Source: Proteus vulgaris
GTDB lineage: Bacteria; Pseudomonadota; Gammaproteobacteria; Enterobacterales; Enterobacteriaceae
Assembly (NCBI GenBank): GCA_901472505.1
Contig: LR590468.1
Location: 3,075,501 to 3,139,500 of the forward strand
Reading direction: 5' to 3'
Length of the DNA stretch: 64,000 nucleotides
Part shown: in pieces, positions 23,732 through 29,401 of the stretch
How positions within the stretch are numbered: position 1 is the first letter of the stretch
Layout: each line of letters starts with the position of its first letter
Notes under the pieces: generated by a model
Seen by the model: only the letters and a program-made list of their open reading frames with translations
The model's database searches: none
Told to the model about the DNA's origin: nothing
Program-made: the position numbers and the translations under genes

Positions 23732-24187
23732 TGTAAACACCTTAAGAGATGAATGTTGCAAACTTGTTTCTTGTTACTAGATTATCACGGAGGCGAGATA
23801 AGCAGGTAGAACAGTTTTTTTTAAATTCGGGCATTAACTGTTATTGTGATGCCATTAAGACTATTCTTAGTTGCTGTTAATAATAGAGATAAAATATCAA
23901 ATAAATTTTATACACAGTGATGAAAATAGAGGAAGAATTGTATTTTTAATGTGCAATTCGCATTTTTTTAATCTTTAGATGCATAAAACTATTGCTATTA
24001 AACTTGTCTCATGCGTTAATGAGTAAGGCCTCAATACAGACCTGATTTATGATTGACATTCTAAGTTAATGAGTTTTAAACAGCATCGCTTTTTGACCGT
24101 TTTCTTCATGTGTGCCCATAAGTTATAGGTAGTTCAGGCCAGTAGATGCCGAGAAGGCAACGTTTTATTGATATATAGGAAAGTCAC
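23732..24187. other. Divergent control region of ylaC and the csp gene
   Basis: About 455 bases without an ORF. The plus-strand part just before the cold-shock gene (about 24040-24187) is less AT-rich and may be a long untranslated leader, common for cold-shock genes. I did not find a recognisable cold-box sequence. Confidence 0.4.
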
Positions 24188-24400
24188 ATGTCTGACAAAA
24201 TGAAAGGTCAAGTTAAGTGGTTCAACGAGTCTAAAGGCTTTGGTTTTATTACTCCAGCAGACGGAAGCAAAGACGTATTCGTTCACTTTTCTGCCATTCA
24301 AGGTAACGGTTTCAAAACTCTGGCTGAAGGTCAGAACGTAGAATTCACAATTGAAAACGGTGCAAAAGGTCCAGCAGCAGCTAACGTAACAGCTCTGTAA
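24188..24400 (+). CDS. CspE/CspC-like cold-shock-domain protein
   Basis: 70 residues, a single cold-shock domain with both RNA-binding motifs ([14 protein letters not shown] and VFVHFSAI) and [11 protein letters not shown] at the end. It is nearest to E. coli CspE, a constitutive RNA chaperone and transcription antiterminator; which csp paralogue this is cannot be settled from one copy. AGGA lies 8 bases before the ATG. A strong terminator follows 26 bases after the stop, so it is transcribed alone. Confidence 0.92.
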
Positions 24401-24426
24401 TTTAAAGCCTTTTAAAAATTTTCTTC

Positions 24427-24458
24427 AAGCCTGTCACCTTATGGTGGCAGGCTTTTTC
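24427..24458 (+). terminator. Terminator of the csp gene
   Basis: Stem AAGCCTGTCACC with GGTGGCAGGCTT (12 pairs, one G-U) around TTAT, then TTTCTT. Confidence 0.9.
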
Positions 24459-24510
24459 TTTATGGGTAAAATAAATAAAAAGAGAATGATAATATTTATC
24501 AGGAGAAAAG

Positions 24511-24705
24511 ATGCAGATTAATGATAGGGTTGTTGTGAAGACGGATGGTATTGATGATCGTGAAGGGATCATCCTGCTTATTGAAGAATTTCATGAAGGT
24601 ATTATGTATTTAGTATCACTTCCCGAGTATCCAAAAGGAATTTGGTTTTTTAATGAAAAAGAGGGCGGAGAAGGTACATTTGTTAGACCAATACAACAAA
24701 AGTGA
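24511..24705 (+). CDS. Small protein, 64 residues, possibly SH3/KOW-like
   Basis: Not recognised by name. It begins [19 protein letters not shown] and has alternating hydrophobic strands ([30 protein letters not shown]), like small SH3-barrel proteins with an early DRVVVK-type strand. TCAGGAGAAAAG just before the ATG is a strong ribosome site, so it is likely translated. It stands alone between the csp terminator and the mgtC leader. Confidence 0.65.
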
Positions 24706-24876
24706 TTTGTGTTTAGGTTCGGTTCATTTACATTTTTAAACTGGCTACTTATACTTTTGCTAAATTTTAGTGGGGAGAAGTCATTTTGGATACGCAAAGT
24801 TGTCGGTTAACAACAAATCAGTTAACTCAAAATAAATTTATTCCAATCAGTAGGTAGGCTGCTTTTCTTCAGTAAA

Positions 24877-24902
24877 ACTGCTTACCACTTTTGGTGGGCA
24901 GT
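24877..24902 (+). ncRNA. Hairpin in the mgtC leader
   Basis: ACTGCTTACCA (24877-24887) pairs completely with TGGTGGGCAGT (24892-24902) with two G-U pairs and a CTTT loop. It lies about 84 bases before the leader ORF. Its role is unknown; it marks a structured 5' region. Confidence 0.5.
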
Positions 24903-24985
24903 GCATCGTAATATTCCTTTCTTATATATTTCTGTTTTGCACTCACCCAAAAACCCTTTATGTAACTAACAAAAAAGGTATAGGT

Positions 24986-25036
24986 ATGTGCTACATTTTT
25001 TTCTCCTTATTTCCTCCTCCTAGGTCGATACGTTAA
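24986..25036 (+). CDS. Candidate leader peptide with a Pro-Pro-Pro run, upstream of mgtC
   Basis: ATG to TAA, product MCYIFFSLFPPPRSIR. AAAGG (24974-24978) lies 7 bases before the ATG, a good ribosome site. Three consecutive CCT codons occupy 25013-25021. Proline-codon leader ORFs control Mg transport and mgtC genes in Salmonella (mgtL, mgtP), and Pro-Pro-Pro stalls ribosomes when EF-P is limiting. Its 70-base distance to mgtC and its overlap with the predicted anti-ribosome-site segment fit a leader role. That it is translated is inference. Confidence 0.55.
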   Translation: MCYIFFSLFPPPRSIR

Positions 25037-25104
25037 TTTCAATACTCTGAACTTTTAGAAAGTATTTTTCAGATTTATTTTTAATCATCATGTAGAGGAA
25101 ATAA
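25007..25104 (+). promoter_or_regulatory. Predicted pairing that hides the mgtC ribosome site
   Basis: TTATTTCCTC (25007-25016) is the exact complement of GAGGAAATAA (25095-25104), which contains the mgtC Shine-Dalgarno. The upstream arm lies inside the leader ORF and includes its first proline codon and part of the second. A ribosome paused on the proline codons would cover this arm and free the mgtC site. Confidence 0.5.
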
Positions 25105-25106
25105 AC

Positions 25107-25805
25107 ATGACGATGACACCTTATATTTTAAATTTGGTAATTGCCATGTGTCTTGGTGCATTGATTGGTGCCGAACGTCAGTGGCGACAGAGGATGGCTG
25201 GTTTAAGGACGAATGCATTAGTTGCCACTGGAGCCGCTGTTTTTATCTTAAGTTCAATCGAGACTTCACCGGATAGTCCTGGCCGAATAGCCGCTCAAGT
25301 GGTTTCGGGGATAGGGTTTCTTGGCGCAGGTGTAATTATGCGAGAAGGAATGAATATTCGAGGACTGAATACAGCGGCAACACTTTGGTGTTCAGCAGGA
25401 ATTGGCGTGTTGTGTGGTTTAGGGCTGTATCAATTGGCGACGATAGCAACACTTCTTATTCTTTGTGCCAATATTTTATTACGAGAAGCCGCTCAGCGCA
25501 TTAATGCTCAACCACAATCTCAAGCAATAGATATTGAGCAACGTTACTCTATTCGAATTATTTGTGATGCTGAAGATGAGGTTTTAGTCAGAACTCTTAT
25601 TTTGCAAGCAATAAATGGTTTACATGTTCGATTACAATCTTTGAGTAGTGCTGATACATTAATGCCTAGCCAATTAGAAGTTTGTGCTGAGTTGCTTGCA
25701 ACGCCTATTGAACAAAAAGAGATAGAAGCCATTGTCTGCCGAGTTAGTTTAGAGAAAAGTGTAAGTGCTATCAATTGGAAAATTGCATCTGAGCACCCAG
25801 CCTAA
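25107..25805 (+). CDS. mgtC: MgtC/SapB-family membrane protein
   Basis: 232 residues. The N-terminal half has about four to five hydrophobic helices with the family signature: CLGALIGAERQWRQRMAGLR, then TNALVATGAA, VVSGIGFLGAGVIMREG and GLNTAATLWCSAGIGVLCG. The C-terminal 85 residues are a soluble ACT-like domain. MgtC supports growth in low Mg and survival in macrophages and modulates the F1Fo ATPase in Salmonella. GAGG lies 8 bases before the ATG at 25107. No mgtB-type Mg ATPase follows; a terminator stands 37 bases after the stop. Confidence 0.9.
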   Translation: MTMTPYILNLVIAMCLGALIGAERQWRQRMAGLRTNALVATGAAVFILSSIETSPDSPGRIAAQVVSGIGFLGAGVIMREGMNIRGLNTAATLWCSAGIGVLCGLGLYQLATIATLLILCANILLREAAQRINAQPQSQAIDIEQRYSIRIICDAEDEVLVRTLILQAINGLHVRLQSLSSADTLMPSQLEVCAELLATPIEQKEIEAIVCRVSLEKSVSAINWKIASEHPA

Positions 25806-25842
25806 CTAACAATAGTTTGAATTAAATACACTTCTTAAGATT

Positions 25843-25873
25843 ACTCTCTATATTCTATATAGGGAGTTTTTTT
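25843..25873 (+). terminator. Terminator of mgtC
   Basis: ACTCTCTATA (25843-25852) pairs with TATAGGGAGT (25858-25867) with one G-U, followed by T7 (25867-25873). Confidence 0.88.
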
Positions 25874-28800
25874 GTCATTGTCATACTGGAGAGATATTAA
25901 ATACCCAAAATTAGCTTAAAAAGAATATGAATATTAAAGAAAGTTATAAGCGATATAGTCTTATCGTTTGTGAGCAAATAAACGTAGTGGCTGATTTTAA
26001 AACTCAGTGTCTCATTGCTGATAGTGAGATCTGCATCATATATTAAGTATTATTACTAACATATAGAAATAAAGTATTTTGTTATCGTAATTATTATTTT
26101 TGTAACTATTACTTTATGGAATAAAAATAGGGATTTTATTCATAGTGAACCAATTAAAAATACACAAGAAAGGCGGAATTGATTTTCGTTTTATTTTAAA
26201 CAACCATTTTTACGTAATTTGATTAATATGCAATTATTTGTATTGTGGTTAACCCGTATATTGTGAGCTCAGAGTGGAAATGACTGAATAGAGTTTAAGC
26301 ATATTTGATATGGTTTCTCTTTTTTATTCATTATTGCTTTCAGATTGTTTTGACTTACTGCTGTTTATTTTGAATAAACGATGAACATTAAAATCAAGTG
26401 AGCATTGGCCATGAGGCGTTTACTTATTAAATGAGGTGCTTAGGTGTATTGTAGGGCAAAAAGTCGTTATTAAGGGGCTTAGTGTAGTATAGAATTTTGT
26501 GGCATAAAGCGTGTTTTCTATTGATTATAATAGCATTTTTTTTAATATCTAAATTATACTCTCAAATTATTTCAATGTATTTGGTGAAATATATATCAAT
26601 ATTTTTCATCTGGTTTCGTTTAAGTGTTAATTTTTGAGTAATATTTTTAATTTAACCAAATGAGTGCCCAGAAAAAGAGAAGCAAGTGTAGTGAAATAGC
26701 AAGTTTAGTCCGCTACAGTAAAGCTGATGAATGGTTGACGAATGTTGTTTGTCATTGTTCATCCGTGATGTGCAAAAAAAATTGAAAAAATGTAATATTT
26801 TTTGTAAAAATCATGTAGAAAAAATGATACTAATAAGTAATCTTACAATGAGAATAGAAAAATCATACCAAGCATTTCTTTGTATAAAATAATAATTTCA
26901 TGATTATATTATTTATAACTTTGTCAAGGATGTAAATCTGACTTATTACAGAAAGAGAATTATCTTAGTATGAAATAGGTATGCCATTACCATTTATCCT
27001 GAAAATAAATATAAAGGATAATTGTGATATTGACCTTTTTTGATTAACTTAAAAAGATAAAAACAAGCTCATACAACCATTAATTAAAAAAGTATACCAT
27101 CAGAAAAAGACGACAAACATTTCACGATAGCTAGCTCAAAAAAGAGAGCGCTCATTTCAATAGAACTGAAAGCAATACACAAAGTATTTGTATTCACGCC
27201 ATGAATAGTCTCAATTATTCTCGACTTAAAAAATACAGTTACAATATTTTTCCGATCCTTCTTTTTAGAAAAAACAGAACACTTTGGAAACGTAAAGTAT
27301 GAAACCCAGTTATTACTTTTTAAGCATAATCTAATAAATGAGATATAGATCTAAATTGCTTAGATATATCAATATTTTTATTACTCTTTTATGGAGAGGA
27401 AATGTCTTTTTAAGCTCAGAATGACTCAAAAAAAGGGTAATAATACGGACTAAATCAGTGATAAGAAGAGAGGAATATTTAGATATGTATTTTTTAGTTA
27501 TCTAAATAAAAATATAACGATATTTAAATCTTTGTCTGTGGCCCATCCCGTCAATATCAACTTTTGTTAAGCAATGGTGTTACTAAAAGTCAGCATCTTG
27601 GGTTCTGTAATACTTTGAGACTTGTGTTAACTAGGTTGAAATGAAGTAACTGAATATTGAAGGGGAAGAAAAGTGAAACAATGCTCATGATTTGTAGCTG
27701 TAAAACAAATCACGATAAAAATTAGTTTCGTTGATAAAAAGTAACATATGATATTTTATGGTTTGTGTTGATGCTAATAAAGTAATCAATAAGATGTTAT
27801 TTTGATCATATTTATTTTTCTTTGTTTACATTAAGGTAGTGAGAGTATACAAGTGTTAAGTGTTGCTCAGGGTGTTAGTCTGCTCGGAAGCTTTTGGTGT
27901 TCAATAGCAATCAAAAGTAGAAAAAACAGAATTTATATTCAATCTTGTTTTTTTATGAATTAATTACTTTATATTGAGGGATCTCTAAATTTTTTTTTAG
28001 AAAATTGAAATTAATATTTCAATTTTAGCCTATTATTTTATAGTAAATGAAGTTGGTTTTATACTTTAAAAATTTAAAATTAACTCGATTTTTTTATTTG
28101 TTTCATTAAAGATAATATCTATAATTAATTTAAATGTATTTTATCAATATGGATAATTATTTTTTATTTCTTCATTTTTTAACTGTTCTTTTTTATTTTT
28201 TATTAAATGAGGCTAAATTTTATAAATTAATTCTTTGTTTTTTATATTTTACTTAAGCTAAATGTTGTATTATGTTTATATTCTGAATGATTATTAATAG
28301 TGAGTTTAAAGTTATTGGTTATTAATTTTATTTTTTCTTTTATTTATCTTTAATATTAAAAAATAAATTAATACAAATATTTACTGTTCATAAAATGGAC
28401 TATAATTCATAAATAAAACTTATTTATATGAGTATATTATTTAGTGGTGATTAATTTACAGTCAATAAAATTCCTATTAAGAGTTCTGTAATTTAAGTGT
28501 TAAAAGCACATCCTAAATCATAAGTATATTTTTATTATTACGAAAGAAACTTTAATGCTGTTGAAAAAAATATTCAATAATTTAAGGGAGAAGATGCATA
28601 ACTCAGAATTTAATTTTAGATGACTTATCTTTATGATACATAAGTGAGTGTTTGTATCATTATGATTTTAAAGAAAAAATTATTCTTTAAATCATGATAA
28701 AAAAAGTAATAACTATAAATAATTATAATAGTCTATTTATTGAACAAATTGTAAATAAAAAGTGATCATTTCTGAGGTTTTAAGTAAATGATGAAAAAAA

Positions 28801-29084
28801 TAATATCTATAGAAATATTTATTAAACAGAAAGGGATTGTTTAGATAAAGATGAGGAGTAGATATAGCAATATATGTTACTGTGATCAAAAAAATCTTCA
28901 ATTTTAGATTTGTCAATTTTTTATGCTGTATTTTTAGGTTTATAAGTTTAATAGATCGTATAAAATAAAAAATTATCATTAATATTTTAATTTGGGTAGA
29001 TTAGCTTATTAATTTACACCAAGTTTTATTACTTTTATCACTTGAATAGTTAATGAACTAATTCCATAATAATGATTATCTTTT

Positions 29085-29100
29085 TGTGATGTGACTCACA
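29085..29100 (+). promoter_or_regulatory. CRP-binding palindrome upstream of flhDC
   Basis: TGTGATGTGACTCACA matches TGTGA-N6-TCACA exactly. In E. coli flhDC is activated by CRP from an upstream site, so this is likely the equivalent. Centre at about 29092, about 310 bases before flhD. Confidence 0.8.
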
Positions 29101-29165
29101 TAGTATTTAAATTAGACTACTTTATCCGTTGAATAACTTAATAGTTAAGGAGTAAAGTTGTTGCG

Positions 29166-29180
29166 TTAGGATTATTCTTA
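29166..29180 (-). promoter_or_regulatory. RcsAB box in the flhDC leader
   Basis: Read on the minus strand, TAAGAATAATCCTA differs from the RcsAB consensus TAAGAATATTCCTA at one of 14 positions. It lies about 70 bases past the CRP site, just downstream of the expected start of transcription, the position of the repressive RcsAB box of E. coli flhDC. Confidence 0.75.
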
Positions 29181-29198
29181 ACGAACTATATTGGCGAG

Positions 29199-29233
29199 CA
29201 TTTAAAGTTTACTTTTAATTTAAATGTTTTTTT
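29199..29233 (+). terminator. Weak terminator-like hairpin in the flhDC leader
   Basis: CATTTAAA (29199-29206) pairs with TTTAAATG (29219-29226), and seven T follow at 29227-29233. The stem is almost all A-T, so it could attenuate rather than stop transcription. Confidence 0.4.
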
Positions 29234-29401
29234 CGCTACTTTTGAAAATGACCGTATCAAAGTAATACAAGGTAGTGTTACTACGCGTCATGTTCATAAA
29301 ATGGGGCCTGGAGATTTAATATTACATTTATATTAATTTCCTCGGGATCTTTCATTAGGAAGATCCTCTTTGTTCAATATAATCGGACGGGATGTAAAGA
29401 G

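What the first reader, a model, noticed from the sequence alone, without database searches (positions are those of the whole stretch)
24974..25112. Proline-run leader ORF overlapping an anti-ribosome-site element ahead of mgtC
A 16-codon ORF with a good ribosome site (AAAGG, 7 bases before ATG 24986) encodes three consecutive prolines just before its end. The segment TTATTTCCTC (25007-25016), which includes the first proline codon and part of the second, is exactly complementary to GAGGAAATAA (25095-25104), the mgtC ribosome site. A ribosome held at the prolines would cover that arm and free mgtC; a fast-moving one would leave it able to pair. Salmonella mgtL and mgtP are known proline-codon leaders of Mg genes and respond to proline charging and EF-P, but this peptide and its direct overlap with an anti-Shine-Dalgarno arm look different. 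This would be a compact, perhaps undescribed, Proteus form of MgtC control.
Basis: partly seen in the sequence, partly recalled or inferred. Interest (0 to 1): 0.78.

Follow-up and report, generated by a model that had tools for sequence, protein, structure and literature searches.

The report
Proteus mgtP proline leader before mgtC
The short proline-rich reading frame ahead of the magnesium-stress gene mgtC is the Proteus copy of a known Salmonella control element (mgtP), but in Proteus its proline codons also seem to be the RNA arm that hides the mgtC ribosome site, a rewiring that is predicted from sequence and not yet tested.

Summary
It is not an undescribed peptide. It is mgtP: prolines at codons 10-12 as in Salmonella, and the 2012 mgtP paper names Proteus mirabilis in its alignment (PMC3641672). 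Such an ORF precedes mgtC in 105 of 106 enterobacterial loci examined.

What may be new is the wiring. In Salmonella the mgtC ribosome site is described in stem-loop D. In 20 of 20 distinct Proteus leaders no local hairpin holds it in silico; it pairs with the Leu-Phe-Pro-Pro codons. Masking a stalled-ribosome footprint leaves it mostly free in 18 of 20 Proteus leaders and 2 of 77 others. Against: no compensatory changes, codon choice near Proteus usage, own-versus-cross pairing between genera at chance level, unremarkable folding energy; the 2012 paper reports the stem-loop layout as conserved. The first proline codon is CCT in 97 of 97 distinct leaders, an RNA- or tRNA-level constraint not limited to Proteus. 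Nothing was measured in Proteus.

The parts
24710..24726 (+). PhoP-box-like repeat TGTTTA-N5-GGTTCA
   Evidence: Sequence; GTTTAG and GTTCATTTACA invariant in 20 of 20 distinct Proteus leaders. The PhoP consensus is recalled, not from a call.
24727..24755 (+). sigma-70-like promoter TTTACA-17-TATACT; transcript start inferred near 24762
   Evidence: 10 of 12 matches; 2 sites found in the stretch against a mean of 2.9 in shuffles, so weak alone; TATACT invariant in 20 of 20 Proteus leaders
24786..24857 (+). first short ORF (23 codons, TTG start) in the place of Salmonella mgtM
   Evidence: ORF of 13-23 codons at this place in 20 of 20 Proteus leaders, start TTG (16), GTG (2) or ATG (2); stop inside GGTA(A/G)G in 19, while L124 has a frame-changing deletion and stops 4 bases earlier
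24853..24886 (+). hairpin GGTAGGC/GCTTACC overlapping the end of the first ORF
   Evidence: 140 of 140 cells paired in 20 Proteus leaders
24878..24901 (+). mutually exclusive alternative hairpin CTGCTTACC/GGTGGGCAG
   Evidence: 180 of 180 cells paired, almost invariant, so no covariation
24974..24978 (+). ribosome site of mgtP (AAAGG)
24986..25036 (+). mgtP, 16-codon leader ORF MCYIFFSLFPPPRSIR
   Evidence: Pro codons 10-12 as in Salmonella mgtP
25007..25016 (+). anti-ribosome-site arm TTATTTCCTC inside mgtP
25013..25021 (+). three consecutive proline codons CCT CCT CCT (codons 10-12)
   Evidence: first Pro codon CCT in 97 of 97 distinct leaders
25095..25104 (+). mgtC ribosome site and spacer GAGGAAATAA, complement of the arm
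25107..25805 (+). mgtC (232 aa)

Best explanation
The segment is the second, proline-sensing attenuator (mgtP) of a PhoP-type mgtC leader of about 345 bases. In Proteus the mgtC ribosome site is hidden not by a local hairpin but by pairing with the Leu-Phe-Pro-Pro codons of mgtP. When ribosomes pause at the proline run (poor proline charging or low EF-P), they cover 25007-25021, the site is released and mgtC is translated; when mgtP is untranslated or read quickly the pairing can re-form. Shown: sequence, orthology, conservation. Predicted: pairing and release. Inferred from Salmonella: pausing, proline/EF-P and Mg response. Transcription attenuation upstream probably also operates.
For: mgtP orthology: position, length, prolines at 10-12, Proteus mirabilis named in the published alignment; x(F/L)PP ORF in 105 of 106 loci. 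Pairing: mgtC site paired to the mgtP core with mean probability >0.5 in 20 of 20 distinct Proteus leaders and locally >0.5 in 0 of 20; by contrast locally in 22 of 25 Yersinia-group, 4 of 4 Serratia-group and 7 of 7 leaders of an unnamed group that I take for Enterobacteriaceae proper. Footprint masking at the first proline raises site accessibility in the window from 0.00 to 0.77, and to above 0.5 in 18 of 20 Proteus leaders against 2 of 77 others. 175 of 180 cells of the 9-bp helix pair. EF-P gene present. Salmonella mgtP responds to proline and EF-P (passages).
Against: No pair of the helix shows changes on both sides. Own core and own ribosome site do not pair better than cross-group combinations (6802 of 20000 permutations as good); inside Proteus the advantage is slight (p 0.021), Providencia 0.15, Yersinia and Morganella about 0.93. 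TTA-TTT-CCT is expected in 14% of draws from the window's codon usage. With 30 more bases upstream in the fold, the site is already more than half free without a ribosome in 2 of 20 Proteus leaders, and L128 stays at 0.21 under the footprint. Both arms are constrained for other reasons (Leu-Phe-Pro-Pro; Shine-Dalgarno). PMC3641672 states that the place of mgtP relative to its stem-loops is conserved in mgtC homologues (its Fig. S1, unseen), and its transcriptional lac fusions already respond. Nothing was measured in Proteus.
Confidence: 0.55

Rival explanations
1. Plain mgtP transcription attenuator, as in Salmonella: ribosome position on mgtP decides whether a terminating (Rho-accessible) or a permissive fold forms downstream; the complementarity with the mgtC ribosome site is a by-product of a Shine-Dalgarno sequence facing CCU-CC proline codons.
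For: Orthology and published Salmonella genetics, where a lac transcriptional fusion responds to mgtP translation (a gfp translational fusion responds too); no covariation; codon choice near usage; CCT invariance also in groups with a local hairpin; mgtCBR leader reported as Rho-controlled (review passage); stem-loop layout stated to be conserved in homologues.
Against: A local hairpin holding the mgtC site is predicted in 0 of 20 Proteus leaders and the long-range helix in 20 of 20; 8-9 pairs are kept in the three divergent Proteus leaders L083, L126 and L128.
Confidence: 0.35
2. The CCT-CC invariance reflects translation itself, for example choice of the proline tRNA isoacceptor or codon-dependent pausing strength, and not RNA pairing.
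For: CCT at the first proline in 97 of 97 distinct leaders against 17 of 97 at the second, also in groups where the ribosome site is held locally; no single upstream partner of CCTCC emerged.
Against: It leaves the matching Proteus ribosome site and spacer unexplained, though chance could suffice.
Confidence: 0.3
3. The mgtC message used in Proteus starts downstream of mgtP, so the leader ORF is not in the mRNA.
For: None found; the promoter scan of 24400-25120 is weak evidence either way.
Against: PhoP-box-like site, -10, first ORF, hairpins and mgtP all conserved over 20 of 20 Proteus leaders.
Confidence: 0.04

Closest known systems
mgtP of the Salmonella mgtCBR leader (PMC3641672)
   Same: Short ORF ahead of mgtC, three consecutive proline codons at 10-12, similar length, ribosome site a few bases upstream, second of two short ORFs; Proteus mirabilis is named in the legend of the published peptide alignment
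   Different: In Salmonella the mgtC ribosome site is described in stem-loop D and the last four mgtP codons in stem-loop C (figure unseen); in Proteus the site is predicted to pair with the proline codons themselves. No MgtA/MgtB-type ATPase over cut-off in this genome
mgtQ of the Salmonella mgtC-mgtB intergenic region (PMC8092293, passages)
   Same: Short ORF whose occupying ribosome releases a ribosome site at the level of translation; Mg-related operon
   Different: Lies ahead of mgtB, 8 codons, acts through acidic residues and alternative stems 1:2/3:4 versus 2:3
mgtL of the mgtA leader (name recalled)
   Same: Proline-codon leader ORF of a Mg gene; PMC3641672 passages mention its four proline codons
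   Different: Described there as unrelated to mgtP; not ahead of mgtC; not compared by sequence here
MifM, SecM and VemP arrest peptides (recalled; MifM seen only as an abstract in a search listing)
   Same: A ribosome held inside a leader ORF opens a stem that masks the ribosome site of the next gene (recalled)
   Different: Arrest by specific nascent peptides sensing protein export, not by a proline run (recalled)

Membership tests
mgtP leader ORFs of mgtC | Short ORF with its own ribosome site upstream of mgtC | tested here: met
mgtP leader ORFs of mgtC | Consecutive proline codons at positions 10-11 (12) | tested here: met
   sequence against the positions given in PMC3641672
mgtP leader ORFs of mgtC | Conserved in relatives | tested here: met
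   ATG ORF with x(F/L)PP in 105 of 106 loci chosen for MgtC at 60% identity or more; none found in L009. Outside that set, L108-L110 had no LFPP or LLPP ORF and L011 none with LFPP; L012-L080 apart from L024 were not examined
mgtP leader ORFs of mgtC | Translated; induction by low proline or low EF-P | not testable with these tools
   shown for Salmonella only
Salmonella-type C/D/E attenuator | mgtC ribosome site in a hairpin downstream of mgtP (stem-loop D) | tested here: not met
   in silico only: local pairing >0.5 in 0 of 20 distinct Proteus leaders, against 7 of 7 in the unnamed Enterobacteriaceae-like group
[quoted passage not shown]
   not part of the consensus fold of 20 leaders; a partial match was seen by eye in a part of the Proteus leaders, not in the window, and was not counted
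Tandem mgtM/mgtP leader | First short ORF with mutually exclusive hairpins upstream | tested here: met
   (ORF 20 of 20; both hairpins paired in all cells). ATP response not testable; mgtM letters were not compared
Translational arrest switch (MifM/SecM kind) | Held ribosome frees a masked downstream ribosome site | tested here: inconclusive
   predicted by masked folding in 18 of 20 Proteus leaders; no experiment

The most novel reading that the evidence does not exclude
In the genus Proteus the proline-sensing codons and the arm that masks the mgtC ribosome site are the same nucleotides, so that mgtP acts as a direct translational on-switch: the sensor is the repressor, and the intermediate C/D/E refolding of Salmonella is not needed. 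The CCU-CC core is kept in every mgtP examined because it once was, or transiently still is, an anti-Shine-Dalgarno arm across Enterobacterales.
Probability: 0.35. Interest if true: 0.55.

Novelty: new variant of a known kind. Interest (0 to 1): 0.4.

Why it matters
If true, one lineage has rewired a well-studied bacterial attenuator so that the codons that sense proline also do the masking, which would show how a leader attenuator can move its output from transcription to translation while the sensing peptide stays the same. The wobble invariance of mgtP (CCT in 97 of 97 distinct leaders) is a sharp comparative fact that an amino-acid view of mgtP does not explain and that simple reporters can test.

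Tried and rejected
Rejected: that the ORF is a new peptide (it is mgtP). Rejected: that Rfam already holds this leader (no family matches between 24458 and 25804 even at E up to 1; none at gathering score there). Tried and negative: compensatory changes in the helix; own-versus-cross duplex test between groups; a shared upstream partner for CCTCC (none consistent). Considered and not pursued: the tRNA isoacceptor explanation; a formal test of stem-loops C and E; the longer mgtP-mgtC distance in some relatives. Absence from print: searches listed no paper whose title or shown abstract treats an anti-ribosome-site role of mgtP proline codons, or Proteus mgtP, beyond PMC3641672; the library lacks most subscription journals, figures were not seen, and supplementary Fig. 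S1 of that paper, on the leaders of mgtC homologues, was not available and may already show a Proteus fold.

Papers: PMC3641672 passages and sections 5, 6 and 11; PMC6908480, PMC5299641, PMC8092293, PMC7858274 and PMC5234074 passages only; all others as search listings or recalled.

Full report
Observation. The ORF 24986-25036 encodes MCYIFFSLFPPPRSIR behind AAAGG with a 7-base spacer. TTATTTCCTC 25007-25016 is the exact complement of GAGGAAATAA 25095-25104, two bases before the ATG of a true mgtC (25107-25805). An exact complement of 10 or more between the leader and the ribosome region occurs in 18 of 1000 shuffles. The region as a whole folds no better than shuffles (z 0.03).

Identity. This is mgtP. 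Lee and Groisman 2012 (PMC3641672; passages and sections 5, 6 and 11 seen) describe mgtP as a 17-codon ORF of the Salmonella mgtCBR leader with proline codons at 10, 11 and 12, and the legend of their Fig. 1B lists Proteus mirabilis among the aligned mgtP peptides. The figure itself was not available. Here the prolines are at 10-12. I examined 106 mgtC loci, chosen for MgtC proteins at 60% identity or more to the window's; 105 have a short ATG ORF with xFPP (xLPP in L087) within 450 bases upstream, and none was found in L009. They reduce to 97 distinct leaders, 20 of them Proteus. In an earlier pass over 59 loci, L108-L110, with more distant MgtC proteins, also had no LFPP/LLPP ORF. The window lies in or near the genus of Proteus cibi by MgtC (98%); the species was not established.

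Rest of the leader. The 20 distinct Proteus leaders align along the whole region. Conserved are a PhoP-box-like repeat 24710-24726, TATACT, a first short ORF (24786-24857 in the window) whose start codon is TTG in 16, GTG in 2 and ATG in 2 of 20 leaders, and two mutually exclusive hairpins at its end, all cells paired in both (140 of 140 and 180 of 180). This is the layout of the Salmonella tandem attenuator mgtM-mgtP. The promoter scan is weak alone (2 sites against a mean of 2.9 in shuffles).

Wiring. In Salmonella the mgtC ribosome site and start are described in stem-loop D, and the paper itself remarks that mgtP might therefore also affect mgtC translation. I computed pairing of the mgtC ribosome site in the mgtP-to-mgtC RNA of all 97 distinct leaders. 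With the mgtP core at >0.5: Proteus 20 of 20, Morganella 6 of 6, Providencia 17 of 23, Erwinia/Pantoea-like 4 of 5, Yersinia group 2 of 25, and 0 of 18 in the rest. With a local partner at >0.5: Proteus 0 of 20, Morganella 0 of 6, Providencia 3 of 23, Erwinia/Pantoea-like 0 of 5, Yersinia group 22 of 25, Serratia group 4 of 4, Budvicia group 2 of 2, Xenorhabdus/Photorhabdus-like 3 of 4, g128 1 of 1, and 7 of 7 in an unnamed group that I take for Enterobacteriaceae proper. The last agrees with a stem-loop D; Salmonella itself was not identified among the loci.

Release. Bases under a ribosome with its P site on the first proline codon were forbidden to pair, in RNAs with 30 more bases upstream. 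In the window the accessibility of the mgtC site rises from 0.00 to 0.77; with a ribosome at the mgtP stop it is 0.24. Above 0.5 under the stalled footprint: Proteus 18 of 20 (L128 stays at 0.21), Providencia 0 of 23, Morganella 1 of 6, Yersinia group 0 of 25, Erwinia/Pantoea-like 1 of 5, the other five groups 0 of 18. So Morganella and Providencia pair with the mgtP core but are mostly not freed. In 2 of 20 Proteus leaders the site is already more than half free without a ribosome. In the window the helix is predicted with each of five 5' ends and at 30 and 37 C. This is equilibrium folding; cotranscriptional and kinetic effects are not modelled.

Evidence against the direct switch. The 9-bp helix is kept in 175 of 180 cells, but no pair shows a change on both sides. 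Leu-to-CTA changes in 5 of 20 leaders break the outermost, tenth pair. Own-versus-cross duplex energies show no coevolution across groups (6802 of 20000 permutations as good); inside Proteus p is 0.021, Providencia 0.15, Yersinia and Morganella about 0.93. TTA-TTT-CCT has a 14% chance from the window's codon usage. So the pairing could follow from an AT-rich genome writing Leu-Phe-Pro-Pro opposite a Shine-Dalgarno site. The 2012 paper states that the place of mgtP relative to stem-loops C, D and E is conserved in predicted leaders of mgtC homologues; whether its unseen Fig. S1 includes Proteus is unknown to me.

An unexpected regularity. The first of the two constant prolines is encoded by CCT in 97 of 97 distinct leaders, while the second is CCA 48, CCG 22, CCT 17, CCC 10. 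CCT is 23% of proline codons in mgtC of the Morganella group and 11% in the Erwinia/Pantoea-like group; one draw per group from these usages gives a joint chance of 4.6e-5, a rough figure because groups are related and mgtC samples are small (7 to 174 codons). In proline pairs of other long ORFs of the same loci and the window CCT comes first in 14 of 56 (six-frame ORFs, some spurious). The invariant string is therefore CCTCC, the core of the anti-Shine-Dalgarno sequence (recalled). It is also invariant where the ribosome site is held locally, so the Proteus pairing cannot be its only reason. No common upstream partner was found.

Physiology. The genome has EF-P over cut-off and a second EF-P-like gene below cut-off, and no MgtA/MgtB-type ATPase over the family cut-off, so this leader probably governs MgtC alone (inference). 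Downstream lie 3.6 kb with one ORF of 60 aa or more (80 aa, minus strand), then flhD.

Verdict. A known element, correctly seen but misjudged as undescribed, with a plausible lineage-specific rewiring that is predicted, conserved in the genus, and unproven.

Noticed in passing
25013-25015 and mgtP of 97 distinct leaders: The first proline codon of mgtP is CCT in 97 of 97 distinct leaders while the second varies; an RNA- or tRNA-level constraint not explained by the peptide.
   Followed up: partly
24786-24857: First short ORF of the leader with interchange of TTG, GTG and ATG starts among 20 Proteus leaders, which suggests that it is translated; the counterpart of mgtM by position.
   Followed up: partly
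24954-24979 (window); columns 224-249 of alignment A3: The ribosome site of mgtP itself can pair with an upstream CCCTT/CCTTT; two-sided changes that keep the pair in 3 and 1 of 20 Proteus leaders at columns 226-247 and 227-246, though 4 and 1 leaders break these pairs. mgtP initiation may be regulated too.
   Followed up: no
25806-29401: About 3.6 kb between mgtC and flhD with only one ORF of 60 aa or more (80 aa, minus strand); AT-rich region upstream of flhD.
   Followed up: no
L004, L007, L008, L024, L091, L149, L158, L188, L193: mgtP starts 230-311 bases ahead of mgtC instead of 116-174 in the other distinct leaders, in several genera, which suggests separate insertions between the two.
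   Followed up: no
G000 whole genome: No MgtA/MgtB-type Mg2+ ATPase reaches the family cut-off, so mgtC stands without its Salmonella partner gene.
   Followed up: partly
24047-24457: A cspA-type RNA thermoregulator ahead of and over a cold-shock gene, upstream of dsrB and mgtC.
   Followed up: no
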